From: Hyphomicrobiales bacterium
GTDB taxonomy: Bacteria > Pseudomonadota > Alphaproteobacteria > Rhizobiales > Xanthobacteraceae
Reading direction: 5' to 3'
Length of the DNA: 64,000 nucleotides
Assembly (NCBI GenBank): GCA_009377695.1
Contig: WHTP01000010.1
Span: forward strand, 1 to 64,000
The position numbers and the translations under genes are program-made. Shown piece by piece: positions 47 through 28,694 of the stretch. The notes beneath the pieces were generated by a model. It was not told where the DNA came from, made no database searches, and was given only the letters and a program-made list of their open reading frames with translations. Numbering within the stretch: the first letter of the stretch is position 1; every line of letters begins with the position of its first letter.

Positions 47-125
47 CTAGTGGAGTTTTGGATTTGACATTCGCTTTGGGCGTCTGCGGTCAACGGGGTA
101 GCGAATGTCAAATCCACTCCACTAG
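47..125. repeat. CTAG-bounded palindrome, family A (copy A1)
   Basis: The element starts and ends with CTAG. The outer stem is CTAGTGGAG, followed by a TTTT bulge in the left arm only, then the 16 bp inner stem GGATTTGACATTCGCT and a loop of about 25 nt. Other family A copies are at 1816 and 22605. The right CTAG (122-125) is shared with the next element, of family B. Confidence 0.85.
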
Positions 126-205
126 TGTCCTTCGATTCCGAAGTTCGTATAAGAGGCCGCCGCGAAATGGTACGAACTTCGGAATCGAACTGGATTCGGG
201 ACGAG
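122..205. repeat. CTAG-bounded palindrome, family B (copy B1a)
   Basis: The outer arm is CTAGTGTCC and the inner stem is CGATTCCGAAGTTCGTA with its complement at 170-186. The right end is disturbed by about ten extra bases and closes with CGAG (202-205) instead of CTAG. Both inner arms carry a GANTC site (GATTC and GAATC). It shares its ends with A1 on the left and B1b on the right. Confidence 0.75.
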
Positions 206-277
206 TGTCCCTTTGAATTCCGAGTTCGCAGGAACATTTGCAGCACGGCCATGCGAACTTTGGATTCGGGACACTAG
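202..277. repeat. CTAG-bounded palindrome, family B (copy B1b, degenerate)
   Basis: It begins CGAGTGTCCCTTTGAATTCC and ends GGATTCGGGACACTAG. The inner arms pair with a few mismatches. The terminal CTAG at 274-277 lies one base before the ATG of the next gene, so this element occupies the place where that gene's ribosome-binding site would be. Confidence 0.7.
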
Positions 278-278
278 C

Positions 279-545
279 ATGATCCGCCCCATCGCCACGG
301 AATTGGCATTATTCGTTGCCCCGTTCGTGCTCTATGCGCTGTTCCTGTGGGCGATCAAGCGCGGGGGCGTGCTCGATCGTGCCAATTGGCCGCTTAAGCA
401 CGTATTCTGGCTGCTGGTCGCTGCATTCCTTTTGGTGATCGGCAGCTTCATCGTCCTGGCCGAATGGGGCGGGGCACCGCCCGGTTCGACCTACGTTCCG
501 GCGCGCATTGAAGATGGAAAATTCATCCCGGGACGGACGAAATAG
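279..545 (+). CDS. DUF6111 family small membrane protein
   Basis: This 88-residue protein has two predicted membrane segments (about residues 7-25 and 38-58) and a short hydrophilic C-terminus. It matches my memory of the DUF6111 family, which sits before the CCA-adding enzyme in Hyphomicrobiales; its function is unknown. I chose the ATG at 279 because the hydrophobic sequence begins there. A longer frame from 213 would translate repeat sequence. No Shine-Dalgarno is visible because a palindrome ends one base upstream. The stop is 4 bp before the next start, which suggests translational coupling. Confidence 0.7.
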   Translation: MIRPIATELALFVAPFVLYALFLWAIKRGGVLDRANWPLKHVFWLLVAAFLLVIGSFIVLAEWGGAPPGSTYVPARIEDGKFIPGRTK

Positions 546-549
546 CCGC

Positions 550-1797
550 ATGAATTCGTCCCGTCGCATCGATGCTTCTTGGCTGCGCGAGGGTGGGCTC
601 CCGCGGCTACTCGGCGTGCTCGACCGCGGCAGCGAAGAGGCGCGCGTGGTCGGCGGCGCGGTGCGTAACGCGCTGCTCGGCGAGCTGGTCGGCGACATCG
701 ATGTCGCCACAACCGCTCTGCCCGATGAGGTGATCCGCCGCGCCGCCGCGGCCGGCTTCAAGCCGGTCCCGACCGGTGTTGAGCATGGCACCGTCACGGT
801 CATAGTTGACGGCACGCCATTCGAAGTGACCACGCTGCGCGAGGACGTCGAGACCTTCGGACGCCATGCCCGGGTCGCATTCGGACGCGACTGGCGGCGC
901 GACGCCGAGCGGCGCGACTTCACGATAAACGCGCTCTATGCGGGGCGCGACGGCACCGTCCACGATCATGTCGGCGGCCTCGCCGATCTTGCGGACCGGC
1001 GAGTGCGCTTCATCGGCGATCCGGCGAAGCGGATCGCGGAGGACTATCTGCGCATCCTGCGGTTCTTTCGTTTCCACGCGGCCTACGGCGACGCGGAGCC
1101 GCCCGATCCCGCCGGCCTGTCCGCCTGCATCGCAGCGCGCGCGGGATTGGAGACGCTGTCACGCGAGCGCGTGCGCATGGAGGTCTTCAAGCTGTTGGTC
1201 GCCAGGCATGCGGTGCCGGCGCTGGTGAGCATGAGCGAGGCGGGCTTGCTGGTGAGCGTGCTCGGAGGTGTGCCGTCGCTCGCGAGCTTCGCCAATATGA
1301 TCAAGCTCGAGCGCGAACTGTCGATGACGCCCGATCCGGTGCGGCGGCTGGGCGCGCTTGGCGTCAACACCACCGAGGACGCGGATCGGCTGCGCGAGCG
1401 GCTGCGCCTGGCCAATGCCGAATACGGCCGGCTCGTGTCGATGGCGGACGATTGGTGGCGCATCACCGTCGCGACCGGCATGCACGACGCGCGCGTGCTC
1501 ATCTATCGACTCGGCGCGCAAAAATTCCTCGGCCGCGCGCTGTTGGCGTGGTCACGGTCCTGGGACGAAGGCGCCGCCGACCAGCGTTGGCACGATCTGA
1601 TCCTGCTGGGCGATCGCTGGACGGCGCCGGTCTTTCCTTTGAGGGCCGCGGATTTCATCGCGCGCGGCTTGACGAAGGGGCCGGCCTTGGGCGCCGCTCT
1701 GCGCGCAGCCGAAGAGGCATGGATCGCGCAGGACTTTCCGATGGATGCGGGGACGATCGCAAACATCGCAGAGGCAGCGCGGGCCTCGTCAAAATGA
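550..1797 (+). CDS. CCA tRNA nucleotidyltransferase / poly(A) polymerase family
   Basis: A 415-residue class II nucleotidyltransferase, expected to add or repair the 3' CCA of tRNAs in the cytoplasm. The fold signature is plain: GGAVRNALLG at about 35-44, the metal-binding pair in GDIDVAT (D49, D51), and the neck motif RRDFTINALY near residue 125, followed by the helical tRNA-binding part. ATG 550 is used, although the frame is open from 508. The length suits alphaproteobacterial members. The stop at 1795-1797 runs directly into a repeat remnant, so there is no free 3' region. Confidence 0.9.
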   Translation: MNSSRRIDASWLREGGLPRLLGVLDRGSEEARVVGGAVRNALLGELVGDIDVATTALPDEVIRRAAAAGFKPVPTGVEHGTVTVIVDGTPFEVTTLREDVETFGRHARVAFGRDWRRDAERRDFTINALYAGRDGTVHDHVGGLADLADRRVRFIGDPAKRIAEDYLRILRFFRFHAAYGDAEPPDPAGLSACIAARAGLETLSRERVRMEVFKLLVARHAVPALVSMSEAGLLVSVLGGVPSLASFANMIKLERELSMTPDPVRRLGALGVNTTEDADRLRERLRLANAEYGRLVSMADDWWRITVATGMHDARVLIYRLGAQKFLGRALLAWSRSWDEGAADQRWHDLILLGDRWTAPVFPLRAADFIARGLTKGPALGAALRAAEEAWIAQDFPMDAGTIANIAEAARASSK

Positions 1798-1800
1798 GAT

Positions 1801-1819
1801 GCTTCTGAACCGCCACTAG
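1801..1819. repeat. Family C palindrome, right-arm remnant
   Basis: The bases GCTTCTGAACCGCCACTAG correspond to the right arm of family C (ACTTCTGAACC, then GCCACACTAG), with two bases missing near the end. The left arm and loop are absent. It abuts A2, giving the order C-A-D, which is the inverse of the D-A-C order at 22516-22757. Confidence 0.65.
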
Positions 1820-1893
1820 TGGAGTGGATTTGACATTCGCCATCTCGTTGACCGCAGACTCCCAAAGCGCATGTCAAATCCAAACTCTACTAG
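1816..1893. repeat. CTAG-bounded palindrome, family A (copy A2, inverted)
   Basis: CTAG at both ends, inner stem GGATTTGACATTCGC, and a T-rich bulge in the opposite arm compared with A1, so this copy is inverted. Its loop, read on the other strand, retains the family A core TCTGCGGTCAACG. A 13 bp linker (CAGCTTATATTTG) joins it to D1. Confidence 0.85.
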
Positions 1894-1906
1894 CAGCTTA
1901 TATTTG

Positions 1907-1982
1907 CTAGTGGTCCTTTGATTCTAACATTCGCAAAGTCGCCCGCTGAGAAGGGATGCGAATGTTAGAATCGGACCACTAG
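1907..1982. repeat. CTAG-bounded palindrome, family D (copy D1)
   Basis: Outer stem CTAGTGGTCC, bulge TTT, inner stem GATTCTAACATTCGC, and a loop of about 24 nt. By reading, it is the exact reverse complement of the copy at 22516-22591. Each inner arm contains a GANTC site. The right CTAG (1979-1982) supplies the TAG stop of the minus-strand glycosyltransferase. Confidence 0.88.
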
Positions 1983-3118
1983 GCTGGCTTCGCCTGGTCG
2001 CCTTCGTCGACGCTCATGGCATTGCCGCGCCAGACGAAGCCGGCTTCGCGCCAGCCTTCGAGCCACAGGACCGGCAGCATCGCGTCGCGCAGCATCGCAT
2101 GCAGCGGATAGAGCAGAGGAAGGTGCCATCCGGCGCTGGCGGCGAGCAGCATTTCCGCGCCATACCAGATGACGAGGAACGCGCCCGCTGCGACAATGAC
2201 GGAATAGCCGGTGGCAATGGCGATGAAGATCGCGGCGAGGAATGGCAGCAGCGCGCCGGAGCCCGCTTCGAGACAATAGAAAGAGGGGAAGCTGTCCCGG
2301 CGCAGCCTCGCCCAACGCACCTGCCGGTCCCATACATCGCCGCGCCGGCGCTCGCCGAGCGGTTGCGGGAATGGCGCATCGACCAGCCGCACCCGGCGTC
2401 CGGTCGCTCGCATGATTTTCGTGGAGGCGGCGTCCTCGGCCGCTTCGGTGGCGAGCGCGCGCAGCCCGCCGGCCGCTTCGATGTCGCCGCGGTGGTAGAA
2501 CAAGGTCTTGCCCTGCGCGAAGCCAAGTCCGATCGTGTCGGCCACGTACTGCCAGCGCGCCTGATAGGTATTGAGGAAGACGCATTCGAGCTGCGCCCAC
2601 AGTCCGGACGGATGGCTGCCGATCGGCGGCGCCGACACCATGCCGGTATCGAACGTCCAGGCTGCCAGCAGCCGCTGCAGGTAGTCGCGCGGCAGCAGCA
2701 CGTTGCTGTCGACCATCACGATGCGGTCGTGCGCGGCCGCGCGCCAGCCCTTGAGCACGTTGTTAAGCTTTGGATTGGCGCTGATGCGTTCGTCGCCGAC
2801 GAGGACTTTGGCGGGAACGTGCGGGTGTTCGGCGATCAGGCTCTGCACCAGCGCCACGACCGGATCGCGTGCCGATGCCGCGCAGAACAGGATCTCGCAG
2901 CGCGGATAGTCGAGGAGAAACGTCGACCGCAGCGTCGCTTCGACGAAATTGTCGATGCCGCAGACCGGGCGGATGATCGTGATCGGCGGTGCGTCGTCCG
3001 GCGGGGGAACCTCGCGCGCGGGCATCCGGCAGCGGACAATAGCGATGGCGATGCTGGCGAGCTGGAAGGCAATGGCTAGTCCGCAGAACGCGGAGGCTGC
3101 CCAGATTGCGACTGTCAT
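1979..3118 (-). CDS. Ceramide-glucosyltransferase-like GT (GT21 type)
   Basis: A membrane glycosyltransferase of about 379 residues. It has an N-terminal membrane anchor, then a GT2-fold domain with the opening ITIIRPVCGIDN, an acidic site in VMVDSNVLLP, and a QxxRW-type motif (DRQVRWARLRRD). Two or three C-terminal hydrophobic helices follow. This pattern fits UGCG / GT21 enzymes, which put glucose on ceramide-like lipids; bacterial members may act on sphingolipids or other lipids. I chose the ATG at 3118; an in-frame TTG at 3151 adds 11 residues. The stop TAG lies inside a palindrome's terminal CTAG. It is divergent from the LpxH-like gene. Confidence 0.75.
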   Translation of the reverse strand: MTVAIWAASAFCGLAIAFQLASIAIAIVRCRMPAREVPPPDDAPPITIIRPVCGIDNFVEATLRSTFLLDYPRCEILFCAASARDPVVALVQSLIAEHPHVPAKVLVGDERISANPKLNNVLKGWRAAAHDRIVMVDSNVLLPRDYLQRLLAAWTFDTGMVSAPPIGSHPSGLWAQLECVFLNTYQARWQYVADTIGLGFAQGKTLFYHRGDIEAAGGLRALATEAAEDAASTKIMRATGRRVRLVDAPFPQPLGERRRGDVWDRQVRWARLRRDSFPSFYCLEAGSGALLPFLAAIFIAIATGYSVIVAAGAFLVIWYGAEMLLAASAGWHLPLLYPLHAMLRDAMLPVLWLEGWREAGFVWRGNAMSVDEGDQAKPA

Positions 3119-3254
3119 CCCCAAACGGTAATGCGGATCGATGACGTGCAAATGACGTCAACGACGCCAAGCCATTGAATCGCTTGTCATAAAACCGCAA
3201 GACAAATCAGGCACTGGCTAGCGCATGGGGATGAACGAAAAAGCGTGAGCCGAC

Positions 3255-4058
3255 GTGAGGGCACCTCTCGAGAACCGCCGTTTCCGCTCGCTGTTTATTT
3301 CCGACGTGCATCTCGGTGCCCGCGGCTCCCAGGCCGAAAAGCTCCTCGATTTCCTGCGCTGGCACGAGGCTGACACGATCTATCTCGTTGGCGATATCGT
3401 CGACGGCTGGGCGCTCCGCTCAGGATGGTTCTGGCCGCAGTCCCACAATGACGTGGTGCAGAAGCTGTTGCGGCAGGCGCGCAAGGGCGTGCCAATCATC
3501 TACGTGCCCGGCAACCATGACGAATTCATGCGCGACTACTACGGCACCCATTTCGGCGGCATCGTGGTGTCGGAGACCGCAATCCACGTAGGCGCCGACG
3601 GACGCCGCTATCTCGTGATCCACGGCGATCACTTCGACCTGGTGGTGACGCAGGCGCGCTGGCTGGCGCTGCTCGGCGGCAAGGCTTACGACTGGGCGAT
3701 CGTCGCCAACCGCGTCTTCAATGCGCTTCGGCGCCGATTCGGTTTTCCCTACTGGTCGCTGTCGCAGTGGCTGAAGCTCAAGGTCAAGAACGCCGTCAAT
3801 TACATTGGCGATTTCGAGAAGGCGCTGGTCGCCGAAGCCCAGCGCCATGACGTACAAGGCGTCATTTGCGGGCACATCCACCATGCCGCGATTCATGAAG
3901 AGTTCGGCGTCCGCTATCTCAACTGCGGCGACTGGGTCGAAAGCTGCACCGCGATCGCGGAGCACCATGACGGCCGCTTCGAGATCCTGACATGGGCCGA
4001 CGACAAGCGGGGCACGCTCGTGCCGGCGGCTGCAGCGCTCAATCGCCGCGCGGCCTGA
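3255..4058 (+). CDS. LpxH-like metallophosphoesterase (UDP-2,3-diacylglucosamine diphosphatase family)
   Basis: A 267-residue calcineurin-like phosphoesterase. The metal-binding motifs are complete and in order: SDVHLG (about 14-19), GDIVDGW, GNHDE, HGDHFD and GHIHHA. The spacing resembles LpxH and its relatives, which cleave UDP-2,3-diacylglucosamine to lipid X in lipid A synthesis. Related paralogues of unproven substrate exist, so the exact reaction is inferred. The start is a GTG, with no strong Shine-Dalgarno. It is divergent from the GT21-like gene, so both may act on envelope lipids. Confidence 0.72.
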   Translation: MRAPLENRRFRSLFISDVHLGARGSQAEKLLDFLRWHEADTIYLVGDIVDGWALRSGWFWPQSHNDVVQKLLRQARKGVPIIYVPGNHDEFMRDYYGTHFGGIVVSETAIHVGADGRRYLVIHGDHFDLVVTQARWLALLGGKAYDWAIVANRVFNALRRRFGFPYWSLSQWLKLKVKNAVNYIGDFEKALVAEAQRHDVQGVICGHIHHAAIHEEFGVRYLNCGDWVESCTAIAEHHDGRFEILTWADDKRGTLVPAAAALNRRAA

Positions 4059-4231
4059 TCGTGCGAAGGTAGCGGCCGACCTAGAAAATTCGATCGTACA
4101 AGGCAAAAGAACGGAAAAGAGAATCGGTAAAATCATTCCGACCCGATAGACACCGCCAGTAGCCGCTCGGTAAGATTTCTCGGCCAAGATCGGGAAAAGA
4201 TCAACCGCCAAAGCTCGTCGAGGAGGAGCCC

Positions 4232-4489
4232 ATGATCCGCATCATCACCGCAGTGGTTGCAACGGTTGCGCTTACGTCAGTCTACGCCACTAGTCCGTCG
4301 TTCGCACAGTCCTGCAAGGACGAGGCGCAAGCCAAGAAGCTTGCCGGCGCTGCGCTGAAGAGCTTCATGACCAAATGCGAGCGTGAGGCGCAGACCAGTT
4401 GCGACACGAAGGCAGGAGCGAAAAAGCTCGCCGGCGCGGCCAAGAACAGCTTCACCAAGAAGTGCCTGACCGAGGCCGTCGGCGGCTGA
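4232..4489 (+). CDS. PsiF-repeat small exported protein
   Basis: An 85-residue protein with a signal peptide (residues 1-25, cleavage after SFA). Two copies of a motif follow, each Cys, a lysine-rich KKLAGAA, then SF, T and KC, at about 28-49 and 57-79. This is the PsiF repeat, first described in an Escherichia coli phosphate-starvation-inducible gene; its biochemical role is unknown. Each repeat has a cysteine at both ends, so periplasmic disulfides are likely. A good Shine-Dalgarno (GAGGAGGAG) lies 6-8 bp before the ATG. The gene is convergent with the DUF1194 gene. Confidence 0.8.
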   Translation: MIRIITAVVATVALTSVYATSPSFAQSCKDEAQAKKLAGAALKSFMTKCEREAQTSCDTKAGAKKLAGAAKNSFTKKCLTEAVGG

Positions 4490-4530
4490 CACGGTCGATT
4501 CTGCTGGCACCGGTCGTGTCTGACGTATTG

Positions 4531-4548
4531 AAGGCGACCGGCCGCCTT
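4531..4548. terminator. Possible small bidirectional terminator
   Basis: The hairpin AAGGCG-ACCGGC-CGCCTT lies in the 70 bp between the two convergent genes and is followed by TTGCTTG. The stem is only 6 bp and the T-run is weak, so this is a candidate only. Confidence 0.3.
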
Positions 4549-4559
4549 TGCTTGCGGGT

Positions 4560-5339
4560 TTACCTTCTGGTCCCCGCGCCGACGCTGACCGTGCCGACAG
4601 CATGGGAGAGGCGATGTTGTGGAGGAAGATCGGCGATCTCGATGATCAGTTTCATCAGGATCGCTTCCGCAAATGTCTCGAAGCTCTTGGCCGCAAGCAT
4701 GAAAGCGCCAGGCCCGCCGATCACGTAGTCTTTATAATATTGGTCGAGGTGCGGCTCGAAAGCGAGGATCGGCAGGCCATTGATGACGATGCCGGCGTTG
4801 ACCGCTTCGTCACGCGCGAGCGTCACTGAGCGCCCGCGGTTGTTGGAGCCGTCGCCCGACACGTCGATGATGCGGCGTTCGGCTTTCGACGGGGCTTGCG
4901 GGAACAGCGTCACGGCATGATCGATCGCTCCTGAGATCGAGGTGCCGCCGCCATACATCATGCGCGGGGCCGATTCGATGGCGCCGGCGAGCGCCTTCAC
5001 CGACATCCCATCCTTGAGCACGGTCCACGGCAGCACCTGCGCCTGCAGGAACGGCCCCGACCACTGCATCATGGTGACCGCGATCGACTGGTTGCGCCCG
5101 CCGAGGATGGCGCTCAAGACGCGTGGGTTCTGGAACGCGGCAACGTAGCCCATCTTCTGGAGTTCGAAGCGCTGGGGGCTGACGCTGCCCGACACGTCGA
5201 CGGCGAGGACGAGCTGCAGGTCGACGGCGTCCTGAGCGTTAGCGCCCTCGCGCGTGACGGCGGCAAACAGCAGCATTGCGGCAAAGCGGACCGCACGCCG
5301 TGTCGGCGTCGATCGGGGCCGGTGATAAGTCGAGCGCAT
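4560..5339 (-). CDS. DUF1194 exported protein with von Willebrand A-like domain
   Basis: A 259-residue protein with an N-terminal export signal (hydrophobic stretch about 18-30, cleavage near ANAQ). A VWA-like domain follows, with the metal-ion-dependent adhesion site DVSGSVS at about 48-54, a GGGTSISGAI segment and a DVSGDGSNN segment. DUF1194 proteins are common in Hyphomicrobiales and their partners are unknown. An extracytoplasmic metal-dependent protein-protein contact is the most that can be inferred. The arginine-rich N-region before the hydrophobic core means the start could lie further in. Confidence 0.75.
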   Translation of the reverse strand: MRSTYHRPRSTPTRRAVRFAAMLLFAAVTREGANAQDAVDLQLVLAVDVSGSVSPQRFELQKMGYVAAFQNPRVLSAILGGRNQSIAVTMMQWSGPFLQAQVLPWTVLKDGMSVKALAGAIESAPRMMYGGGTSISGAIDHAVTLFPQAPSKAERRIIDVSGDGSNNRGRSVTLARDEAVNAGIVINGLPILAFEPHLDQYYKDYVIGGPGAFMLAAKSFETFAEAILMKLIIEIADLPPQHRLSHAVGTVSVGAGTRR

Positions 5340-5438
5340 CGGACGACCTCCGTCGCCCTCCCAGGCCCCAGCATAGCGGCATTTTCAGCGACTCGCACCA
5401 AGTCATCTCAGCAGCTACATTAGGGTCTAAGGCATGCC

Positions 5439-5687
5439 ATGACCCCGATCCGACGGCCAGCCGACCTCGCTCGCAGCACCGCCCGACGGTTCGCGGAGCG
5501 CAAAGCCACGCGCGAGGCCTTCCGGCGCGACACCTTCGCGCTGCCGCGTGCGCAGGCGCGCGCGAAGGCGAGGGAGCTGTTCAAGCGCTTTCCCAAGGCC
5601 GCCTATCAGACCGAGATCGAGAGCTGGCGCGAGCTGCCCGGCGATTGCATCGAATTCACCATGCGGCGCCTGCCCAGCGCGGACTAG
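5439..5687 (+). CDS. Small basic hypothetical protein
   Basis: An 82-residue, strongly basic, alanine- and arginine-rich protein. It contains predicted amphipathic helix (about 8-50), no cysteine, no membrane segment and no recognised domain. Codon use is like the neighbouring genes, and the frame is free of repeats until its last codon, which supports it being real. The stop TAG at 5685-5687 lies inside the terminal CTAG of palindrome B2. I do not recognise a family. The C-terminus (about 50-78) has a compact, more ordered composition. Confidence 0.5.
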   Translation: MTPIRRPADLARSTARRFAERKATREAFRRDTFALPRAQARAKARELFKRFPKAAYQTEIESWRELPGDCIEFTMRRLPSAD

Positions 5688-5758
5688 TGTCCCGATTCCG
5701 AAGTTCGTACCATTTCGCAGCGCCCTCCTATGCGAACTTCGGAATCGAAGGACACTAG
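5684..5758. repeat. CTAG-bounded palindrome, family B (copy B2)
   Basis: CTAG at both ends, outer stem TGTCC/GGACA, two extra bases in the right arm, inner stem CGATTCCGAAGTTCG, and a loop containing CATTTCGCAGCGC. Both arms carry a GANTC site. It is followed by the 13 bp linker CAACTCTTTGAAT, the same linker as after B4 at 22503-22515. Confidence 0.88.
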
Positions 5759-5771
5759 CAACTCTTTGAAT

Positions 5772-5849
5772 CGAGTGTGGCTTTGGTTCAGAAGTCCGCA
5801 TGTCGGACTCGCCGCAAGAATGATGCGGACTTCTGAACCGCCACACTAG
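5772..5849. repeat. CTAG-bounded palindrome, family C (copy C1)
   Basis: The left end is CGAG (one change from CTAG) and the right end is CTAG. Outer stem TGTGGC, bulge TTT, inner stem GGTTCAGAAGTCCGCAT, loop about 21 nt. It is nearly identical to C3 at 22680-22757. No GANTC site lies in its arms. Confidence 0.87.
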
Positions 5850-5993
5850 GCCGGCGAAGGCCCGGTTGACGCGTCTGTGATGATGCCTGTGCTTTCCCTG
5901 ACTTAAAATTGTGGTTCCAGTATAATCTTGATGTCGGGATGGGAGTACTGTCCTGTAACCGGGCCATCCATCGTGCCCTCGGGAGCTTGATTC

Positions 5994-8655: not shown

Positions 8656-8731
8656 CCAGTGTGGCGGTTCAGAAGTTCGCCATCCTTTGCGGCTGGATCG
8701 CGAGCGAACTTCTGAACCAAAGCCACACTGG
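8656..8731. repeat. CTAG-like palindrome, family C (copy C2)
   Basis: Inner stem GGTTCAGAAGTTCGC with its complement GCGAACTTCTGAACC; outer stem GTGTGGC/GCCACAC; bulge AAA in the right arm, so the copy is inverted. The ends are CCAG and CTGG rather than CTAG, and the arm has GTTCGC where other C copies have GTCCGC, changed on both sides. It lies in the leader of the DUF2158 gene. Confidence 0.83.
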
Positions 8732-8745
8732 CAACTCATTAAGCG

Positions 8746-8814
8746 CTAGTTTGAATCCGAAGTTCGCTAACGAACGTCCTGCAAATCAAGCGAACTTCGG
8801 AATCGGGACACTAG
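8746..8814. repeat. CTAG-bounded palindrome, family B (copy B3)
   Basis: Outer end CTAGTTTGAATCCGAAGTTCGC (only part of the outer stem kept) and right arm GCGAACTTCGGAATC followed by GGGACACTAG. GANTC sites lie in both arms. A 14 bp linker starting CAACTC joins it to C2. Confidence 0.8.
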
Positions 8815-10043: not shown

Positions 10044-10117
10044 CTAGTGTCCCGATTCCGAAGTTCGTACCATTTCGCAGCGGCCGCTTGATGCGGACTT
10101 CTGAACCGCCACACGAG
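10044..10117. repeat. Chimeric palindrome, left half family B, right half family C
   Basis: The left half (CTAGTGTCCCGATTCCGAAG, then TTCGTACCATTTCGCAGCG) is family B. From about 10091 the sequence is the right arm of family C (ATGCGGACTTCTGAACC, then GCCACACGAG). The inner arms no longer fully pair. It fits a deletion between neighbouring B and C elements such as those at 5684-5849. It fills the whole space between the ATPase and hemF. Confidence 0.8.
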
Positions 10118-11033: not shown

Positions 11034-11105
11034 GTAGGGTGGGCAAAGGCGCGGGCCAAGCGTGCGCGCCTCTCTGCGCGGGCGGCGGCAGCGCCGTGCC
11101 CACGC
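11034..11105. repeat. REP element next to the transposase (R1)
   Basis: It starts GTAGGGTGGGCAAAGGCGC and ends GCGCCGTGCCCACGC, an imperfect palindrome beginning with the GTAG tetranucleotide typical of REP sequences served by RAYT transposases. R2 at 11666-11735 is its inverted counterpart on the other side of the transposase gene. Confidence 0.85.
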
Positions 11106-11109
11106 ACGG

Positions 11110-11640
11110 TCACTCGCCGAACTGGCCGGCGATCTCACGCATATCGCCACCCCAGTCGAGGGGCAGAATGCCATCCGCTACATAGCGATGGAAGCTGCTG
11201 TGCGGCCAGTCGCGCACCCGAGACACGTATCCATGCTTGACGGGGTTGAAGTGAATGTAGTCCACATAACGCGCGAGATCCGTATTGTCGCGGATCGCGT
11301 GCTCCCAATAGCGTCGCTGCCATATTCCCTTTTCGCGCTTTGCGATCTTGCTTCGAGTGCGCGAGCTCTCATGCACAAGGCCGCGCGAAAACGCACTCTT
11401 GATCAGACTCCATCGCACTGGAAAGGCCGCGTCTCCTACCGGCAGCGACCAGATCGCATGCATGTGATCAGGCAGAACGCAGATTGCGATCGTTTCGAAC
11501 GGGTGGCTTGTCTGAACGGACTGATACATGCGCCGAAGACGATCGACATGGCGCACCAGCAGATCGCCGGTTCGGTCGGCCAACGCCACGGTGAAGAAGA
11601 AGGCGCCGCCATCGATATTCGCTCGACGGTAACGGGACAT
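11110..11640 (-). CDS. REP-associated tyrosine transposase (RAYT)
   Basis: A 176-residue Y1 transposase of the IS200/IS605-related TnpA_REP group. The HUH motif is H59-M60-H61 in LPDHMHAIW. The C-terminal block GIWQRRYWEHAIRD, then YVDYIHFNPVKHG, is the group's hallmark and contains the likely catalytic tyrosine helix. RAYTs are usually single-copy domesticated enzymes that cut and rejoin REP palindromes as single strands. Here the gene lies between two inverted REPs (R1, R2), with further REP copies at 13191 and 19055. The protein appears intact and full length. Confidence 0.92.
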   Translation of the reverse strand: MSRYRRANIDGGAFFFTVALADRTGDLLVRHVDRLRRMYQSVQTSHPFETIAICVLPDHMHAIWSLPVGDAAFPVRWSLIKSAFSRGLVHESSRTRSKIAKREKGIWQRRYWEHAIRDNTDLARYVDYIHFNPVKHGYVSRVRDWPHSSFHRYVADGILPLDWGGDMREIAGQFGE

Positions 11641-11665
11641 GATTGCATCTTATCTCGCGAAACGC

Positions 11666-11735
11666 GCGTGGGCACGGCGCTCCGCCGGTGCGGTGGGGAG
11701 CCTGCGCATGTGGCTTGCGCCTTTGCCCACCCTAC
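11666..11735. repeat. REP element next to the transposase (R2, inverted)
   Basis: On the minus strand it reads GTAGGGTGGGCAAAGGCGC at one end and GCGCCGTGCCCACGC at the other, the same termini as R1 with a different middle. Together R1 and R2 bracket the RAYT gene as inverted copies, the usual arrangement for these elements. Confidence 0.85.
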
Positions 11736-22315: not shown

Positions 22316-22420
22316 CGTCATCCCGGGGCGCGCCGAAAGGCGCGAACCCGGAATCCATAATCACAAACCGGGCGTATGGATTCCGGGCTCGCGGGCAATT
22401 GCCCGCGCCCCGGAATGACC
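22316..22420. repeat. Bradyrhizobium-type 105 bp inverted repeat
   Basis: The ends are GTCATCCCGGGGCGC and GCGCCCCGGAATGAC, and the middle arms are CCGGAATCCATA and TATGGATTCCGG. From memory, this two-hairpin repeat with GGAATCCAT is very common between genes in Bradyrhizobium and relatives. It lies just upstream of the M48 protease gene. Confidence 0.75.
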
Positions 22421-22427
22421 GCCGCCG

Positions 22428-22502
22428 CTAGTGTCCCGATTCCGAAGTTCGTATCATCTTGCGGCGCGTTCGTTTACGAACTTTGGAATCGAAGGACACT
22501 AG
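22428..22502. repeat. CTAG-bounded palindrome, family B (copy B4)
   Basis: CTAG at both ends; inner arms CGATTCCGAAGTTCGTA and TACGAACTTTGGAATCG with one mismatch; GANTC in both arms. It is the first unit of a four-element mosaic (B-D-A-C) that fills 22428-22757. The linker to D2 is CAACTCTTTGAAT. Confidence 0.88.
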
Positions 22503-22515
22503 CAACTCTTTGAAT

Positions 22516-22591
22516 CTAGTGGTCCGATTCTAACATTCGCATCCCTTCTCAGCGGGCGACTTTGCGAATGTTAGAATCAAAGGACCACTAG
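22516..22591. repeat. CTAG-bounded palindrome, family D (copy D2)
   Basis: Outer stem CTAGTGGTCC, inner stem GATTCTAACATTCGCA, bulge AAA in the right arm. By reading, it is the exact reverse complement of D1 (1907-1982) over all 76 bp. The 13 bp linker CAAATATAAGCTG joins it to A3, as in the inverted D1/A2 pair. Confidence 0.9.
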
Positions 22592-22604
22592 CAAATATAA
22601 GCTG

Positions 22605-22683
22605 CTAGTGGAGTTTTGGATTTGACATTCGCTTTGCGAATCTGCGGTCAGCAGGGTAGCGAATGTCAAATCCACTCCACTAG
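22605..22683. repeat. CTAG-bounded palindrome, family A (copy A3)
   Basis: Same orientation and almost the same sequence as A1 (47-125), with changes only in the loop. Its right CTAG (22680-22683) is at the same time the left CTAG of C3. Confidence 0.9.
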
Positions 22684-22757
22684 TGTGGCTTTGGTTCAGA
22701 AGTCCGCATTTCGGACTCGCCGCAAGAATGATGCGGACTTCTGAACCGCCACACTAG
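22680..22757. repeat. CTAG-bounded palindrome, family C (copy C3)
   Basis: Inner stem GGTTCAGAAGTCCGCAT, bulge TTT in the left arm, loop about 21 nt, CTAG at both ends. It differs from C1 at only a few positions. The right CTAG (22754-22757) supplies the TAG stop codon of lemA. Confidence 0.9.
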
Positions 22758-23317
22758 AACTTCACTTGCGGCGCCTGGCCGGCCACCGCGCGCTCGTCGC
22801 CGAGATCGAAGAATTCCTTCTGCGTGAATCCGGTCGGGCCGGCGATCAGCACCGCCGGGAATTGCTGGATGCCGGTGTTGTACTCCTGCACTGCATTGTT
22901 GAAGAAGCGCCGCGCCGCGGCGATCTTGTTCTCGAGGTCCGACAGCTCCACCTGCAACTGCTGGAAGTTTTGGTTTGCCTTGAGGTCCGGATAGGCTTCG
23001 GACAGCGCAAACAACTGCCGCAATGCACCCGTGAGCATGTTTTCGGCCTGCGCCATTTGCGCCGGGCCTTGCGCCGTCACCGCGGCGTTGCGCGCCTGCA
23101 CCACCGCTTCGAGCGTGCCGCGCTCGTGGGATGCATAGCCCTTCACCGTCTCGACCAGGTTGGGGACAAGGTCGTGCCGCTGTTTGAGTTGCACGTCGAC
23201 GTCGGCGAACGCCTGATTAACCCGCTGCCGCATGGCGACGAGGCCGTTGTAGAGGACGATCACCCAGACCAGCAGGAGGGCAAGGGCGCCGAGGACAATC
23301 CAGGTAGAGATCGACAT
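22754..23317 (-). CDS. lemA: LemA family protein
   Basis: A 187-residue protein with an N-terminal membrane helix (about 4-24) and a long helical LemA domain. The conserved core reads VNQAFADVDVQLKQRHDLVPNLV, then YASHE and the end motif EFFDL. LemA proteins sit in the inner membrane and often accompany M48 proteases. I chose the ATG at 23317 because it gives the usual MSI start; an in-frame start at 23353 would add 12 residues. GGAG is present but 11 bp away. The stop codon lies in the terminal CTAG of palindrome C3. Confidence 0.9.
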   Translation of the reverse strand: MSISTWIVLGALALLLVWVIVLYNGLVAMRQRVNQAFADVDVQLKQRHDLVPNLVETVKGYASHERGTLEAVVQARNAAVTAQGPAQMAQAENMLTGALRQLFALSEAYPDLKANQNFQQLQVELSDLENKIAAARRFFNNAVQEYNTGIQQFPAVLIAGPTGFTQKEFFDLGDERAVAGQAPQVKF

Positions 23318-23473
23318 GACGAACGGGCTCCGGAGGGGTGCTTTGCCGTCCAAAGGTACCGCAAAGCCCTATTGGCTGCGATAGGCGCTGGAAACGCGGC
23401 AAGATTGGATACAAGATTGACAGCAGGGCTCGATCATAACGGACGGGACATACAGCATTGGTGTCTGGATTCG

Positions 23474-23507
23474 GCGCTCAGGTTCGAACCGGACCGCCCC
23501 TGAGCGC
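23474..23507. other. Hairpin upstream of the MFS gene
   Basis: GCGCTCAGG and CCTGAGCGC are a 9 bp inverted repeat separated by 16 bases, about 50 bp before the MFS start codon, and T-rich sequence follows. It may be a leader hairpin or an operator. It has no CTAG ends and is not one of the repeat families. Confidence 0.4.
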
Positions 23508-23558
23508 GTTTATGCTTTTGGACTGCCTTCCCCCTGGTCCCATCGCCGGCGAAATTTC

Positions 23559-25010
23559 ATGACAAAACCGCAAGCTGGCGCTGGGCCGGCGATTGTTGAC
23601 ACCGACATTCCCGCCCGGCTCGACCGGTTGCCCTGGGGCAGCTTCCACACGCTGGTCGTCGCCGCGCTTGGCGTGACTTGGATTCTCGATGGGCTGGAAG
23701 TGACGCTCGCCGGCGCGGTCTCAGGTGCGCTTAAGGAAAGCCCGGTCCTGCAATTCGGCAACACCGACGTTGGCATTGCCGCCAGCGCCTATGTCGCCGG
23801 TGCGGTGCTGGGCGCGATGCTGTTCGGATGGATGACCGACCGGCTCGGACGCAAGAAGCTGTTCTTCATCACGCTTGCGGTCTATCTCGTCGCCACCGCC
23901 GCGACGGCGTTCACCTGGAATTTGTGGACCTTCGTCGTCTGCCGTTTCGTCACCGGCGCCGGCATCGGCGGCGAATACACCGCCATCAATTCCACCATTC
24001 AGGAGCTGATCCCGGCGCGCTATCGCGGCTGGACCGATCTCGTCATCAACGGCAGCTTCTGGATCGGTGCCGCGATCGGCGCGATCGGCTCAATCGTGCT
24101 GCTCGATCCGGCGGTACTCGGCGGCGACCTCGGCTGGCGCGCCGCCTTCCTGATCGGGGCGGTGCTGGGCCTCGTGGTCTTCCTGATGCGGATGTGGATC
24201 CCGGAATCGCCGCGCTGGCTGATGACGCACGGCCGCATCGCCGAAGCCGAGGCGACCGTCGCCGGCATCGAGAGCGACTTCCGCCGCCGCAACAGCGTCA
24301 TTCCGGCCGGCGATCTGCCGCGCATCCGATTGCGCGCGCGCTCGCACACGCCGCTCTCCGAGGTCGCGCGCACGCTGTTCCGAGATCAGCGCCAGCGCAC
24401 GGTGGTCGGCCTGACGCTGATGGCGTCGCAGGCGTTCTTCTACAACGCGATCTTCTTTACCTATGCGCTGGTGCTGACCGACTTCTACGGCATCCGCCCC
24501 GATCACGTCGGCTGGTACCTTCTTCCGTTTGCCGCCGGCAATTTCCTCGGGCCCGTTTTCCTCGGCCGCTTCTTCGACACTATCGGCCGGCGCCCGATGA
24601 TCTCCGCGACCTATGCGATCTCCGGCATCCTGCTGGCCGTGTGCGGTTATCTGTTCGCGATCGGTATCTTGAGTGCCGCACAGCAGACCGTCGCCTGGAT
24701 GGTGATCTTCTTCGTCGCCTCGGCCGCAGCAAGCTCGGCCTATCTCACCGTAAGCGAGACCTTTCCGCTCGAAGTGCGCGCGCTCGCGATCGCATTCTTC
24801 TATGCCATCGGCACCGGTATTGGCGGCGTGGCCGGTCCGTTGCTGTTCGGTCACCTCATCGACACCGGCTCACGCTGGAGCGTCTACGGCGGCTATCTGT
24901 TCGGCGCCGTGCTGATGCTTGCGGCTGCGGTCGTGGCGTTCCGCTACTGCGTGCCGGCGGAAAGAAAGTCGCTCGAGGCGGTGAGCCGGCCGTTGGCGGC
25001 GGTCGATTGA
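23559..25010 (+). CDS. MFS transporter (sugar / aromatic-acid porter type)
   Basis: A 483-residue major facilitator with 12 expected membrane helices. The loop 2-3 motif GWMTDRLGRKKLF (about 90-102), the helix 4 GAGIGGEYTAINSTIQELIPARYRG block (in part), and the loop 8-9 copy GRFFDTIGRRP are clear. The sequence is closest in style to the sugar-porter and aromatic acid:H+ symporter families. The cytoplasmic central loop (about 215-270) is long and basic. No catabolic genes lie next to it, so the substrate cannot be told. It is convergent with smc. Confidence 0.85.
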   Translation: MTKPQAGAGPAIVDTDIPARLDRLPWGSFHTLVVAALGVTWILDGLEVTLAGAVSGALKESPVLQFGNTDVGIAASAYVAGAVLGAMLFGWMTDRLGRKKLFFITLAVYLVATAATAFTWNLWTFVVCRFVTGAGIGGEYTAINSTIQELIPARYRGWTDLVINGSFWIGAAIGAIGSIVLLDPAVLGGDLGWRAAFLIGAVLGLVVFLMRMWIPESPRWLMTHGRIAEAEATVAGIESDFRRRNSVIPAGDLPRIRLRARSHTPLSEVARTLFRDQRQRTVVGLTLMASQAFFYNAIFFTYALVLTDFYGIRPDHVGWYLLPFAAGNFLGPVFLGRFFDTIGRRPMISATYAISGILLAVCGYLFAIGILSAAQQTVAWMVIFFVASAAASSAYLTVSETFPLEVRALAIAFFYAIGTGIGGVAGPLLFGHLIDTGSRWSVYGGYLFGAVLMLAAAVVAFRYCVPAERKSLEAVSRPLAAVD

Positions 25011-25070
25011 GCGCACCTGCGGCGCTCTTGCTTGTTGCCGGCATCCGCGCCTTGACAGCCGGGATTTATT

Positions 25071-28000
25071 TTAACTCGCCTCGCGCAGTTTCACGGCGCC
25101 TTCGAGGTCGACCGACACGAGCTGCGACACGCCGCGCTCGGCCATGGTCACGCCGAACAACCGGTTCATGCGCGCCATGGTGATCGGATTGTGGGTGATG
25201 ATCACGAAGCGCGTGTCGGTCGAGCGGGTCATCTCGTCCAGCAGGTCGCAGAAGCGCTCGATGTTGTGGTCGTCGAGCGGCGCGTCGACCTCGTCCAGCA
25301 CGCAGATCGGCGCCGGATTGGTGAGGAACACCGCGAAGATCAGCGCCATCGCGGTCAGCGCCTGCTCGCCGCCGGAGAGGAGCGAGAGCGTCGCCGGCTT
25401 CTTCCCGGGCGGCTTCGCCACGATCTCGAGGCCGGCCTCCAGCGGATCGTCGGCCTCGACCAGTTGCAGCTCAGCGGTGCCGCCGCCGAACAGCTCGCTG
25501 AACAGCTTCTTGAAATGCGTGTTGACCACCTCGAAGGAGGCGAGCAGCCGCTCGCGCGCTTCGCGGTTGAGGTTCTGGATGCCCTGGCGGAAGCGCTTGA
25601 TCGCCTCGACTAGGTCGTCGCGCTCCTTGGTGAGATTGCCATGCTGCGCCTCGACCTCCTGCAGTTCCTCCTCGGCGCGCAGGTTGACGGCGCCGAGCCG
25701 CTCGCGCTCGCGGCGGATGCGGTCGAGCTTGGCCTCGACATCCGCGACATTGGGCAGCGCGTTGCCGGGTTTGATCTCGGCGAGCTCGGCGACAGCGGCC
25801 GGTTCGATCTCGAGCATTTCGCGGATTTCGTGCTCGACATCGGCGAGGCGGCGGTTGGCCCCGGTGAAGCGCTCCTCCGCGCGAGCGGCCTCTTCCCGCG
25901 CGGCGCTCACTGTTTCGAGCGCGGCGCGGGCGTCGCGGTCGGCGGCGGCGAGCGCATTCTCGGCTTCGGCCAACTGATCGGCGGCGCCGCGACGTGTCGC
26001 TTCGGCGGCTTCGATCTCGCTGATCAGCGCGGCGCGCTTGTCGGCGAAGGCTGCGGGCGCGTCATTGAGGCTCGCGCGCTCGGACGTTGCTTCCACGACG
26101 CGCTGCTCGAGCGTCGCAAGCTGCGAGGCAGAACTGGCCTGGCGCGACGTCCAGCCCTCGCGTTCCGAGCCGATTTGCGCAAGACGCCGCGCTGCCATCT
26201 CCGCCTCACGCGCCAGCGCCTGCGCCTCGGCGCGTACCTCGGCGAGATGCACGCGGTGCTTTTCGATATCGCCACGCACCGTGCCGAGCTGCATTTCGAT
26301 GTCGGCGGCCGGCGCTAGCTCGGCCAAGCCGTGCTCGGCTTCGCCGCGCGCTGCGGCCGTTTCCTCGCAGCTTGCGACCAGGCGGTTCTTTGCCTCGCTC
26401 AACGCCGACAGGCGCGCAGCCTCGCGGCTCGCTTCGCGTTCGGCATTGGCGTGCTGCTCGCGCGCGGCCGCCGCCGTGCGCTGCTGTTCGCGCCACTTGT
26501 CGCGTGCTTCGGTTTCAGCTTCCGCCGCCGTGCGTACATCTGCCTCTGCGGCCGAGACCGCCTTGCGCTTGACATCGACGTCGGCGCGCACCGTTTGCAG
26601 CTCCGCCTCGATATCGGCGAGGCGGTTCTTGCCGGCGAGCCGCCGGGCGGCGCCGGTCGGCGCATTGGCGGCAACCGAGAATCCGTCCCACCGCCAGAGA
26701 TCGCCGTCGCGCGAGACCAGCCGCTGTCCCGGCTTGAGCAGCGGAACGAAGCGCGGCGCATCGGCGCGGTCGATCACACCGATCTGCATGACACGGCGCG
26801 AGAGTTCGTTCGGCGCATGGACGTGCTGCCGCAGCGGCTCGACGCCTTCCGGCAGTTGCGGATCGTCGGCCTCGATGGCGGCGCCGGCCCAGCGCATCGG
26901 CGAGGACGGATCGACGGGCGCTTCGAGGTCGTCGCCGAGCGCCGCGCCGAGCGCGGCTTCGTAGCCCTTCGTCACCGTGATGTCTTCGATCACCGATGGC
27001 CACAGGCTCTTGGTGTCGACATGGAGGAGCTTCGCGAGCGTCTTCGCTTCGGTGTCGAGCCGTTGCACGCGGCGCTCGGCTTCGGCGAGCGGACCGCGCG
27101 CCACGTCGAGCGCCTGCCGCGCGCCGGAATGCGCCGCCTCAGCGCGCATTGCGGCGGCTTCCGCCTCGGTGACGGCGGCCTGCTCGGCGTCGGCGACTTG
27201 CGCCAGCGCGACGAGGTCGGGACGTCCTGCCGTGCTTGCTTCGAGTTGCGTGAGCTCAGCCTCCACGCCGGACAGCTCCTCGTCGAGGCGCTTCCTGCGC
27301 TCGCCGTGTGCATCGTATGCAGCCAACAACTGGTTGCGCCGCGCCGTGAGGTCGGCAAGCGTTCCGGTCAGTTCGCTGAACGTCTTCTCGGCGGCCGCCA
27401 GCACCGCGTCGGCATCGACCACCCGCTGGTCTGCGCCGGTGCGCTTCTCGGCATTGACGTTGGCGTCGCGCTTCAGCGTCTCCTCTTCCTCGACAAAACG
27501 CGCCAGCGCCGCCTCGGCGTCGGCGGCTTGCCGGCGCTCGCGCTCGATGTCGGCGGCAAGCTGGATGAGCCGTTGGTCGAGCTCGGCCATGCGGTTCTTG
27601 GCGCGGGCTTCTTCCTGCTCGAGCGTTTCGCGCGCGATCACGAGCCGTTGCAAAGCGGCGGCGGCTTTGGCCTCGGCCTCGCGCAGCGGCGGCATCGCGG
27701 ACGACGCTGCCTCCTGACGCGTGGAGGCCTGCGCCTGCTCCCCGGTCCGCTCGCCGACCACGCGGACGGCGAGGTTGCGGGCCTGTTCGGCCTCGGCCAG
27801 CTCGGCATTGGCGCCGATCCAGCGCAGATGGAACAGCGTGGCCTCGGCGGTGCGGACCTGCGCCGCGATGTTGCGGTAGCGCACCGCCTGGCGCGCCTGC
27901 TTCTTCAGAGAATCGACCTGGCCGGCGAGCTGGTTGATGACGTCCTCGATGCGCGCGAGGTTCTGCTCCGCGGCGCGCAGGCGCAGCTCTGCCTCGTGGC

Positions 28001-28529
28001 GCCTCGCATGCAGGCCGGAAATGCCGGCCGCCTCTTCGAGCACCCGCCGGCGCTGCTCGGGCTTCGCCTGGATGATCTCGCCGATACGGCCCTGGTGCAC
28101 GAGTGCAGGCGACCGCGAGCCGGTCGAGGCGTCGGCAAACAGGATATGGACGTCGCGGGCGCGCACCTCGCGGCCGTTGATGCGATAGGTCGACCCCTTG
28201 TCGCGCTCGATCCGGCGCGTGATGTCGAGCGCCTCGTGCTCGTTGAACTGCGCCGGTGCCTTGCGCTGGCTGTTGTCGATATGCATCGCGACTTCGGCAT
28301 TGTTGCGCGACGGCCGGCTATTGGTCCCGGAGAAGATCACGTCGTCCATGTCGGCGGCGCGCAGCGACTTGTGCGAGGTCTCGCCCATCACCCAGCGCAG
28401 CGCTTCGACCAGGTTTGACTTGCCGCAACCGTTTGGCCCGACCACGCCGGTCAGTCCCGGTTCGATCAGGAAATCGGTAGGTTCGACAAAGGACTTGAAG
28501 CCAAGTAGCCGCAGTCGCGTGAGTTTCAT
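25071..28529 (-). CDS. smc: Chromosome segregation SMC protein
   Basis: A 1152-residue SMC ATPase that compacts and resolves chromosomes. Head 1 has Walker A GPNGCGKS (31-38). Two long coiled-coil arms, rich in Ala, Glu and Arg, flank a hinge near 510-640 (around ALGAALGDDLEAP). Head 2 has the signature LSGGEQALTA, Walker B CVLDEVDAPLDDHN and the D/H-loop end FVIITHN. The length matches alphaproteobacterial SMC. Upstream are a chimeric palindrome and a cluster of GANTC sites. The strongly biased codons make long antisense open frames across it; these are shadows. Confidence 0.97.
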   Translation of the reverse strand: MKLTRLRLLGFKSFVEPTDFLIEPGLTGVVGPNGCGKSNLVEALRWVMGETSHKSLRAADMDDVIFSGTNSRPSRNNAEVAMHIDNSQRKAPAQFNEHEALDITRRIERDKGSTYRINGREVRARDVHILFADASTGSRSPALVHQGRIGEIIQAKPEQRRRVLEEAAGISGLHARRHEAELRLRAAEQNLARIEDVINQLAGQVDSLKKQARQAVRYRNIAAQVRTAEATLFHLRWIGANAELAEAEQARNLAVRVVGERTGEQAQASTRQEAASSAMPPLREAEAKAAAALQRLVIARETLEQEEARAKNRMAELDQRLIQLAADIERERRQAADAEAALARFVEEEETLKRDANVNAEKRTGADQRVVDADAVLAAAEKTFSELTGTLADLTARRNQLLAAYDAHGERRKRLDEELSGVEAELTQLEASTAGRPDLVALAQVADAEQAAVTEAEAAAMRAEAAHSGARQALDVARGPLAEAERRVQRLDTEAKTLAKLLHVDTKSLWPSVIEDITVTKGYEAALGAALGDDLEAPVDPSSPMRWAGAAIEADDPQLPEGVEPLRQHVHAPNELSRRVMQIGVIDRADAPRFVPLLKPGQRLVSRDGDLWRWDGFSVAANAPTGAARRLAGKNRLADIEAELQTVRADVDVKRKAVSAAEADVRTAAEAETEARDKWREQQRTAAAAREQHANAEREASREAARLSALSEAKNRLVASCEETAAARGEAEHGLAELAPAADIEMQLGTVRGDIEKHRVHLAEVRAEAQALAREAEMAARRLAQIGSEREGWTSRQASSASQLATLEQRVVEATSERASLNDAPAAFADKRAALISEIEAAEATRRGAADQLAEAENALAAADRDARAALETVSAAREEAARAEERFTGANRRLADVEHEIREMLEIEPAAVAELAEIKPGNALPNVADVEAKLDRIRRERERLGAVNLRAEEELQEVEAQHGNLTKERDDLVEAIKRFRQGIQNLNREARERLLASFEVVNTHFKKLFSELFGGGTAELQLVEADDPLEAGLEIVAKPPGKKPATLSLLSGGEQALTAMALIFAVFLTNPAPICVLDEVDAPLDDHNIERFCDLLDEMTRSTDTRFVIITHNPITMARMNRLFGVTMAERGVSQLVSVDLEGAVKLREAS

Positions 28530-28607
28530 GTGGCGGTCATTCCAAGGTCACGACGTGGTCGATCGACTGGATCGGTAAATCCTTGCGGTCGATAGCAGCA
28601 CGCGGCA

Positions 28608-28694
28608 CTAGTGTCCCGATTCCGAAGTTCGCACAACCGCTCTGCGACGTCCTCCAATGCGAACTTTGGAAGGACTTCTGAACCGCCACACCAG
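28608..28694. repeat. Chimeric palindrome, family B joined to a family C right end
   Basis: CTAGTGTCCCGATTCCGAAG with the right arm GCGAACTTTGGA is family B. At about 28680 it switches to AGGACTTCTGAACC then GCCACACCAG, the family C right end. The junction differs from that of the chimera at 10044, so it arose separately. It lies about 80 bp upstream of smc. Confidence 0.78.

What the first reader, a model, noticed from the sequence alone, without database searches (positions are those of the whole stretch)
47..28694. A modular family of CTAG-bounded palindromes with four covarying stem sequences
Ten elements, two chimeras and two fragments share one design: CTAG, outer stem of 5-6 bp, a 2-4 nt T-rich bulge in only one arm, a 14-16 bp inner stem and a loop of about 20-30 nt. 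Four families differ in stem sequence: A GGATTTGACATTCGC, B CGATTCCGAAGTTCG, C GGTTCAGAAGTCCGC, D GATTCTAACATTCGC. The substitutions between families are matched in both arms. CTAG is usually rare in proteobacterial DNA, so its use at nearly every end is notable. Constrained structure with free sequence suggests a selected hairpin or a transposase substrate rather than decaying DNA.
Basis: partly seen in the sequence, partly recalled or inferred. Interest (0 to 1): 0.85.

Follow-up and report, generated by a model that had tools for sequence, protein, structure and literature searches.

The report
Double-hairpin jumping DNA of alphaproteobacteria
The hairpins are halves of a 166-letter piece of parasitic DNA that has no genes of its own and very probably moves with the help of transposons of a known bacterial family (IS630); it is scattered in many copies through many soil and water bacteria and is built in an unusually rigid way.

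Summary
CTAG-bounded hairpins come in pairs: two different hairpins, head to head, their T-rich bulges facing a linker of about 13 nt, form one unit of about 166 bp (108 of 124 linked neighbours; the 16 exceptions are nested, mosaic or decayed). Insertion is seen twice: removing the inner unit from the composite at 22428-22757 restores, without gaps, the unit seen at 5684-5849; and a unit of genome G339 is absent from four relatives with 93-96% identical flanks. IS630-family transposons of related genomes have ends that match the outer, bulge-free arms (up to 17 of 19 positions; outer arm closer than inner arm in 302 of 308 hairpins). Best reading: non-autonomous elements (MITEs) of CTAG-targeting IS630 transposons, whose inner ends are misspaced by the bulge. 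They resemble the published two-armed CIR repeats, whose mobility was unexplained. No cognate transposase was found in this genome, and no movement was tested experimentally.

The parts
47..125 (+). A hairpin (bulge of 3 nt in the 5' arm), CTAG at both ends; shares its right CTAG with the next element
122..277 (+). two degenerate B-type hairpins in tandem (122-193, 202-277)
1816..1982 (+). A-D unit, 167 bp: A hairpin 1816-1893 (bulge in right arm), linker, D hairpin 1907-1982 (bulge in left arm)
   Evidence: further copies of the whole unit in the own genome and relatives
1890..1910 (+). linker of the A-D unit, CTAG + 13 nt + CTAG
5684..5849 (+). B-C unit, 166 bp: B hairpin 5684-5758, linker, C hairpin 5772-5849; its left CTAG overlaps a TAG that corresponds to a TAG at the same place in relative G005
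5755..5775 (+). linker of the B-C unit, CTAG + 13 nt + CGAG (changed CTAG)
8656..8814 (+). decayed C-B unit: C hairpin 8656-8731 (ends CCAG/CTGG), B hairpin 8746-8814
10044..10117 (+). chimera: outer arm of B joined to outer arm of C, inner arms and linker missing
22428..22757 (+). composite: B-C unit (22428-22515 plus 22680-22757) interrupted by a D-A unit
22516..22683 (-). D-A unit nested at the linker CTAG of the B-C unit; CTAG on both sides, one (there CGAG) in the intact paralogue
28608..28694 (+). chimera of a B hairpin and the right end of C

Best explanation
The elements are non-autonomous transposable elements (MITEs) of about 166 bp that are moved in trans by IS630-family (Tc1/mariner-type) transposases which insert at TA within CTAG. 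Each unit is palindrome(end 1) - CTAG - 13 nt - CTAG - palindrome(end 2). The outer arm of each palindrome is a working terminal repeat (CTA|GTG + about 19 nt) bound by the transposase. The inner arm is an inverted copy in which 2-5 mostly T-rich nt are inserted, nearly always after position 6 or 7. That shifts the recognition sequence away from the cleavage site, so the inner ends should not be cut and the pair should move as one body. SHOWN by sequence: the unit, its orientation rule, presence/absence at CTAG (nested unit, orthologous site), IS630 transposons with matching ends in related genomes. INFERRED: that these or sister transposases move the units, that the duplication is TA, that the bulge disables the inner end, and that pairing is kept because both arms answer to one transposase.
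For: Unit: 108 of 124 linked neighbours in 9 genomes have both bulges facing the linker; linker 13 nt in 85 of these 108; the two outer arms are never nearly identical (0 of 108 with 2 or fewer differences). In 80 of the 100 loci chosen by one end sequence, 58 of 58 linked pairs obey the rule, linker 12-14 nt in 57; in 20 loci of the order search 18 of 18, linker 13 nt in 16. Insertion: composite minus inner unit aligns without gaps to the intact unit; the G339 unit is absent from G365, G487, G386 and G492, and from the more distant G489 and G486. Cognate ends: of 11 IS630 elements, 7 match some outer arm of the 9 genomes better than shuffles at p <= 0.004 (up to 17 of 19 positions; shuffled mean maximum 8.3-9.0), G147 at 0.009, G100 at 0.020; four other IS630s used as controls reach 7-10, p 0.23-0.96; the outer arm is closer to these ends than the inner arm in 302 of 308 hairpins, 1 tie, 5 opposite. 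G061's IS ends GTGTCCCGAGTCATAAGTTCGC / GTGTCCTGAACCAGAAGTTCGC stand beside unit ends GTGTCCCGATTCCGAAGTTCGC / GTGCCCTGAACCTGAAGTTCGC. IS ends beginning GTGGTC and GTGGAG (G168) mirror D and A. The G049 transposase (254 bits) and 9 of 9 others (251-288 bits) are IS630 family (NF033545, cut-off 100). Many copies of two further IS630 groups in G049 sit exactly in hairpin-border CTAGs.
Against: The own genome has no DDE_3 (IS630) hit and no match to the G049 transposase at E <= 1e-20; G006 and G070 are not among the 34 positive genomes either, although rich in hairpins (many assemblies are drafts, and MITEs may outlive their transposon). G047 (p 0.066) and G075 (p 0.713) ends do not differ from shuffles, and matches are to arms of any of 9 genomes, not only the same one. 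The same-genus IS630 of G004 matches its own genome's unit ends at 14 of 19; the own genome's A and D arms reach only 12 of 19. No hairpin was found at the ends of 28 of 30 IS630 loci: the autonomous elements lack it, and the hits in L171 and L181 lie beside the element. At the orthologous site the relatives read CAYTGAGC, not CTAG, so the target must have become CTAG first or insertion was not exact, and G339 differs there by a further 14 nt. 34 of 292 well-formed hairpins have no neighbour.
Confidence: 0.85

Rival explanations
1. They are REP-type palindromes (BIME/REPIN-like doublets) moved by a RAYT (Y1 tyrosine transposase) acting on single-stranded hairpins with a bulge.
For: Inverted hairpin doublets with linkers resemble BIMEs; a RAYT gene lies in the window at 11110-11640 (NF047646, 182.5 bits, cut-off 80), the only PF01797 match of the own genome at E <= 0.001.
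Against: That RAYT is framed by GTAG-type repeats GTAGGGTGGGCAAA (11034) and TTTGCCCACCCTAC (11722), not by CTAG hairpins. PF01797 matches occur in 46 of 198 family genomes, hairpins in 107 of 198; G002, G003 and G004 are rich in hairpins and have no match (all three are incomplete drafts). IS630 ends match the arms.
Confidence: 0.05
2. The hairpins are kept for a host function (RNA processing, 3'-end protection, nucleoid or CcrM-related signalling) and dispersal is incidental.
For: Very regular architecture over many genera; stems vary far less than loops within the own genome (0.012-0.037 against 0.076-0.224 mean difference); GANTC in one outer arm of most units.
Against: Insertion sites resemble CTAG sites in general: site inside a long frame in 23 of 50, other CTAG 34 of 92, random points 745 of 860; junction at a stop codon 18 of 52 against 38 of 100 other CTAGs. 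Patchy within the genus (no hits in G001 and G007 with strict filters). Nested insertions. No Rfam family at gathering threshold in the window.
Confidence: 0.08
3. The CTAG is a 4-bp target duplication made by another CTAG-targeting family such as IS481, and similarity to IS630 ends is convergence.
For: TG...CA ends and CTAG on both sides would fit such elements (recalled, not tested against their ends); TA and 4-bp duplication cannot be told apart here.
Against: No IS481 match over its cut-off in G000, G006, G049 or G070; IS630 ends of several genomes match beyond shuffles.
Confidence: 0.03

Closest known systems
CIR elements (CcrM-associated intergenic repeats; Chen and Shapiro 2003, not held; seen only through section 7 of review PMC2229807 and passages of PMC10969869)
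   Same: Alphaproteobacteria, intergenic, two long inverted repeats as two arms joined by a linker, conserved GANTC; the review says more information is needed on the mechanism of mobility
   Different: about 110 bp there, about 166 bp here; GANTC at or near a terminal loop there, in the stem here. Sequences could not be compared
RUP of Streptococcus pneumoniae with IS630-Spn1 (passages of PMC2229807)
   Same: short non-autonomous element whose ends match an IS630-type transposon, TA target
   Different: 107 bp; nothing like paired palindromes with bulged inner arms is described in those passages
REP/BIME with RAYT (passages of PMC3733652)
   Same: palindromes in doublets, high copy number
   Different: GTAG or CGTC tags; here CTAG, a long stem and IS630-like ends
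RIMEs, Sm-repeats and AB, C palindromes of Sinorhizobium and Bru-RS of Brucella (passages of PMC2573895 and PMC2266754)
   Same: intergenic (partly palindromic) repeats of the order; Bru-RS is a proposed hot spot for IS711, which duplicates TA in YTAR
   Different: sequence relation not tested

Membership tests
MITE of an IS630-family (Tc1/mariner-type) transposon | short, many copies | tested here: met
MITE of an IS630-family (Tc1/mariner-type) transposon | ends match terminal repeats of an autonomous member | tested here: met
   up to 17 of 19 positions; weaker for the own genome's A and D arms (12 of 19)
MITE of an IS630-family (Tc1/mariner-type) transposon | insertion at TA with TA duplication | tested here: inconclusive
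   CTAG on both sides, single in the intact paralogue; TA and CTAG duplication cannot be told apart because the element would start with G and end with C; relatives of G339 read CAYTGAGC
MITE of an IS630-family (Tc1/mariner-type) transposon | autonomous element in the same genome (usual, not necessary) | tested here: not met
   none found in G000; IS630 relatives with hairpins in the same genome in G004, G022, G037, G049, G061, G118, G147
REP/BIME with RAYT | RAYT gene flanked by the same palindromes | tested here: not met
   flanked by GTAG repeats
REP/BIME with RAYT | GTAG or CGTC tag | tested here: not met
   tag is CTAG
CIR elements | two palindromic arms joined by a linker | tested here: met
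CIR elements | GANTC in the repeat | tested here: met
   75 of 108 units have it in exactly one outer arm, none in both, 33 in neither, 27 of these in G049
CIR elements | about 110 bp; GANTC at a terminal loop | tested here: not met
   mostly 165-168 bp; GANTC in the stem
CIR elements | sequence similarity to CIR1-4 | not testable with these tools
   original paper not held; no CIR sequence seen

The most novel reading that the evidence does not exclude
Alphaproteobacterial IS630 transposons and their double-hairpin MITEs carry a CcrM methylation site (GANTC) at a fixed place, positions 8-12 of the terminal repeat, usually in only one end, so that transposition is tied to the cell cycle (hemimethylated DNA after the fork), as Dam sites do for IS10 (recalled). 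Together with misspaced inner ends this would be a self-limiting element whose palindromes are parts of a cell-cycle-gated transposition switch.
Probability: 0.2. Interest if true: 0.8.

Novelty: new variant of a known kind. Interest (0 to 1): 0.6.

Why it matters
Two-armed palindromic repeats of alphaproteobacteria have an open question of origin: the review section that I read says that more information is needed on how CIR repeats move (PMC2229807). A transposon family with matching ends, a strict building rule (outer ends clean, inner ends misspaced, linker of about 13 nt) and an orthologous site without the unit make the question testable at the bench. The units are also landing sites for other IS630 elements (G049), which bears on genome plasticity. 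They may also break draft assemblies: 10 of 69 A-arm matches lie within 200 bases of a contig start.

Tried and rejected
RAYT as the mover: set aside because the only RAYT of the genome is framed by GTAG repeats and hairpin-rich relatives show none. IS481: no match over cut-off in four genomes. RNA family: nothing at gathering threshold in the window; with a lax threshold 9 matches over 14 loci, 7 to plant or animal miRNA models and 2 to Brucella sRNAs, all far below cut-off. Scan for an autonomous copy with the exact B end: 75 of 82 matches lie in complete hairpins; of the other 7, two (L263, L289) are cut by the locus end, and ten long frames behind the other five show no transposase match in NCBIfam (80 of the 100 loci used). 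Placement at stop codons looked special by eye but is what CTAG sites in general show. An in-frame test without removing the element is biased by stops inside the element and was replaced. Plasmid collection: no match for the B-C unit.

Rows dropped: one search used 11 of the 13 IS630 loci with a repeat found (L195 served as control, L193 was left out); one search used 21 elements and left out L194 and L200, which also listed a CTAG pair (15 of 30 loci did). Several of the 21 are close relatives and G8 and C12 are fixed in nearly all ends, so the shuffles overstate the GANTC excess. One search covered 48 chosen loci. Hairpin statistics come from a scan that requires pairing.
Full report
Observation. 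They do not arise in simulated windows (0 in 40 simulations, 9 observed with exact CTAG at both ends), four tested copies fold strongly, and 11 window copies show paired changes beyond shuffles in four of five measures. CTAG as such is not enriched (49 found, 76 expected).

Unit. A 12-kb DNA search showed that what is repeated is a pair: about 166 bp of B + linker + C (5684-5849) and about 167 bp of A + linker + D (1816-1982), each with many copies in the own genome and in relatives. A scan of fetched loci of 9 genomes gave 308 distinct hairpins. Of 124 neighbours separated by a linker, 108 have both bulges facing the linker. Of the 16 exceptions five are nested units by the order of their hairpins (window 22428, L001, L035, L155, L158); the others pair hairpins of different families or are decayed and were not examined one by one. 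Among the 108, the linker is 13 nt in 85, the unit is 165-168 bp long in 98, and the two outer arms always differ clearly; in the own genome the pairs are B-C 23, A-D 22, A-B 2. A third pair with other stems occurs in L155 and L158. Of 292 well-formed hairpins away from locus ends, 34 have no neighbour found by the scan.

Distribution. With the model built from 11 window copies, the own genome gives 150 hits, which is the number scored. 107 of 198 genomes of the family in 32 of 47 genera are positive, and 49 of 297 genomes of the order, some of the family included, in 28 of 123 genera. The exact B end occurs in at least 100 stretches of named records (the scan stopped at its limit), among them Nitrobacter winogradskyi, Hyphomicrobium sp. 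CS1BSMeth3, Caulobacter ginsengisoli, and many metagenome-assembled genomes, for example of Pseudorhodoplanes, Bradyrhizobium and Phenylobacterium. In 80 of those loci 58 of 58 linked pairs follow the orientation rule, linker 12-14 nt in 57. In 20 loci from genomes of other families of the order 18 of 18 linked pairs do, with further stem sequences that still pair.

Movement. (1) Cutting the inner A-D unit out of the composite 22428-22757 leaves 166 bases that align without a gap to the intact B-C unit at 5684-5849. A B-C unit inside an A-D unit is seen in L001 and L035. (2) A unit of G339 is missing from G365, G487, G386 and G492, whose flanks are 93-96% identical; G339 reads GCACTAG[unit]CTAGCC, the relatives CAYTGAGC. 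The relatives thus lack the CTAG itself, so the target arose in G339's line or insertion was not exact; G339 also has 14 further nt to the right. More distant G489 and G486 lack the unit too. (3) In the window one unit begins at a TAG that is also present at that place in G005. Junctions at stop codons are no more frequent than for other CTAGs (18 of 52 against 38 of 100), and sites fall in long frames as other CTAGs do (23 of 50, 34 of 92; random points 745 of 860).

The mover. Of four genomes searched, G000 and G070 have no DDE_3 (IS630) match, G006 has 2 and G049 has 34. In G049 many copies of two IS630 groups sit exactly in CTAGs at hairpin borders, with ends of their own; the ends of a third group resemble the ends of hairpin units of that genome (14 of 19 positions). 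Its transposase (IS630 family, 254 bits) has matches at E <= 1e-20 in 34 of 198 family genomes, itself and G004 of the same genus included. Terminal repeats were found at 13 of 30 fetched loci by a TA-based scan, and 15 of 30 list a CTAG pair. Of the 11 elements compared, 7 match an outer arm of some of the 9 genomes at p <= 0.004 (up to 17 of 19 positions; shuffled mean maximum 8.3-9.0), G147 at 0.009, G100 at 0.020; G047 and G075 do not differ from shuffles, nor do four other IS630s used as controls. Outer arms are closer to these ends than bulged inner arms in 302 of 308 hairpins, 1 tie, 5 opposite. G061 shows both ends of a unit next to both ends of its IS630; G168 and G121 have IS630 ends that begin GTGGTC or GTGGTT and GTGGAG, as D and A do. 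Nine further transposases tested are IS630 family. The IS630 elements themselves do not carry the hairpin.

Mechanism. [quoted passage not shown] In the units the outer arms keep the spacing found in the autonomous ends; the inner arms carry 2-5 extra nt, nearly always after position 6 or 7. I infer that this disables inner ends, so that the pair moves as one body. This step is not tested. Stems are far more uniform than loops within the own genome, as expected if stems are transposase sites; why the inner arm is retained at all is not explained by this (a second binding site or a hairpin step are possible).

GANTC. 75 of 108 units have GANTC in exactly one outer arm and none in both; 27 of the 33 without it are from G049. 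Of 21 IS630 elements 15 have GANTC at positions 8-12 of at least one end (12 in one end, 3 in both), with all four bases at N (shuffles: mean 0.20, maximum 3); two of the four elements that served as controls are among them. The ends are related to each other and G8 and C12 are nearly fixed, so this may be plain transposase recognition; a CcrM link is a hypothesis.

Known relatives. The published CIR repeats share the two-armed plan, GANTC and host range, and their mobility was called in need of more information (PMC2229807, section 7); length and place of GANTC differ and I could not see the sequences. The listings of searches (41 and 106 shown in part: 20 of 256 and 8 of 67 papers) showed no title or abstract start that describes these units or an IS630 partner for them; full texts were seen only in the passages named. 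The library holds open-licence papers only, so this is weak evidence of absence.

Noticed in passing
window 11034-11735: RAYT gene (11110-11640, minus strand, NF047646 182.5 bits) framed by inverted GTAG-type repeats GTAGGGTGGGCAAA / TTTGCCCACCCTAC; the only PF01797 match of the genome at E <= 0.001
   Followed up: partly
IS630 ends, e.g. L177, L188, L183, L175, L171: GANTC at positions 8-12 of a terminal repeat in 15 of 21 IS630 elements, with N free
   Followed up: partly
L092-L115 (G049): other IS630 groups repeatedly inserted in CTAGs that border hairpins
   Followed up: partly
L009, L021, L030: junction CACTAATTTAGTG or CACTAAATTAGTG between neighbouring elements, perhaps an excision footprint
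   Followed up: no
L155 2105-2252, L158 2102-2250: a third hairpin pair (one outer arm GTGTCCCGGTTCCGACGCTTGT) nested in A-D units
   Followed up: partly
window 22341-22393: palindrome CGCGAACCCGGAATCCATA, by eye like the Br-REP2 repeat of Bradyrhizobium (PMC5082802 passage)
   Followed up: no
window 62315-62366: 20-bp palindrome TTGGTGCATGATCCCGAAAA, another possible repeat family
   Followed up: no
window 48469-48615: 55-nt imperfect inverted repeat with 37-nt spacer
   Followed up: no
linkers of B-containing units: linker sequence partly conserved across genera: by eye AATCATAnnnTTG between the two CTAGs, B on the right
   Followed up: partly
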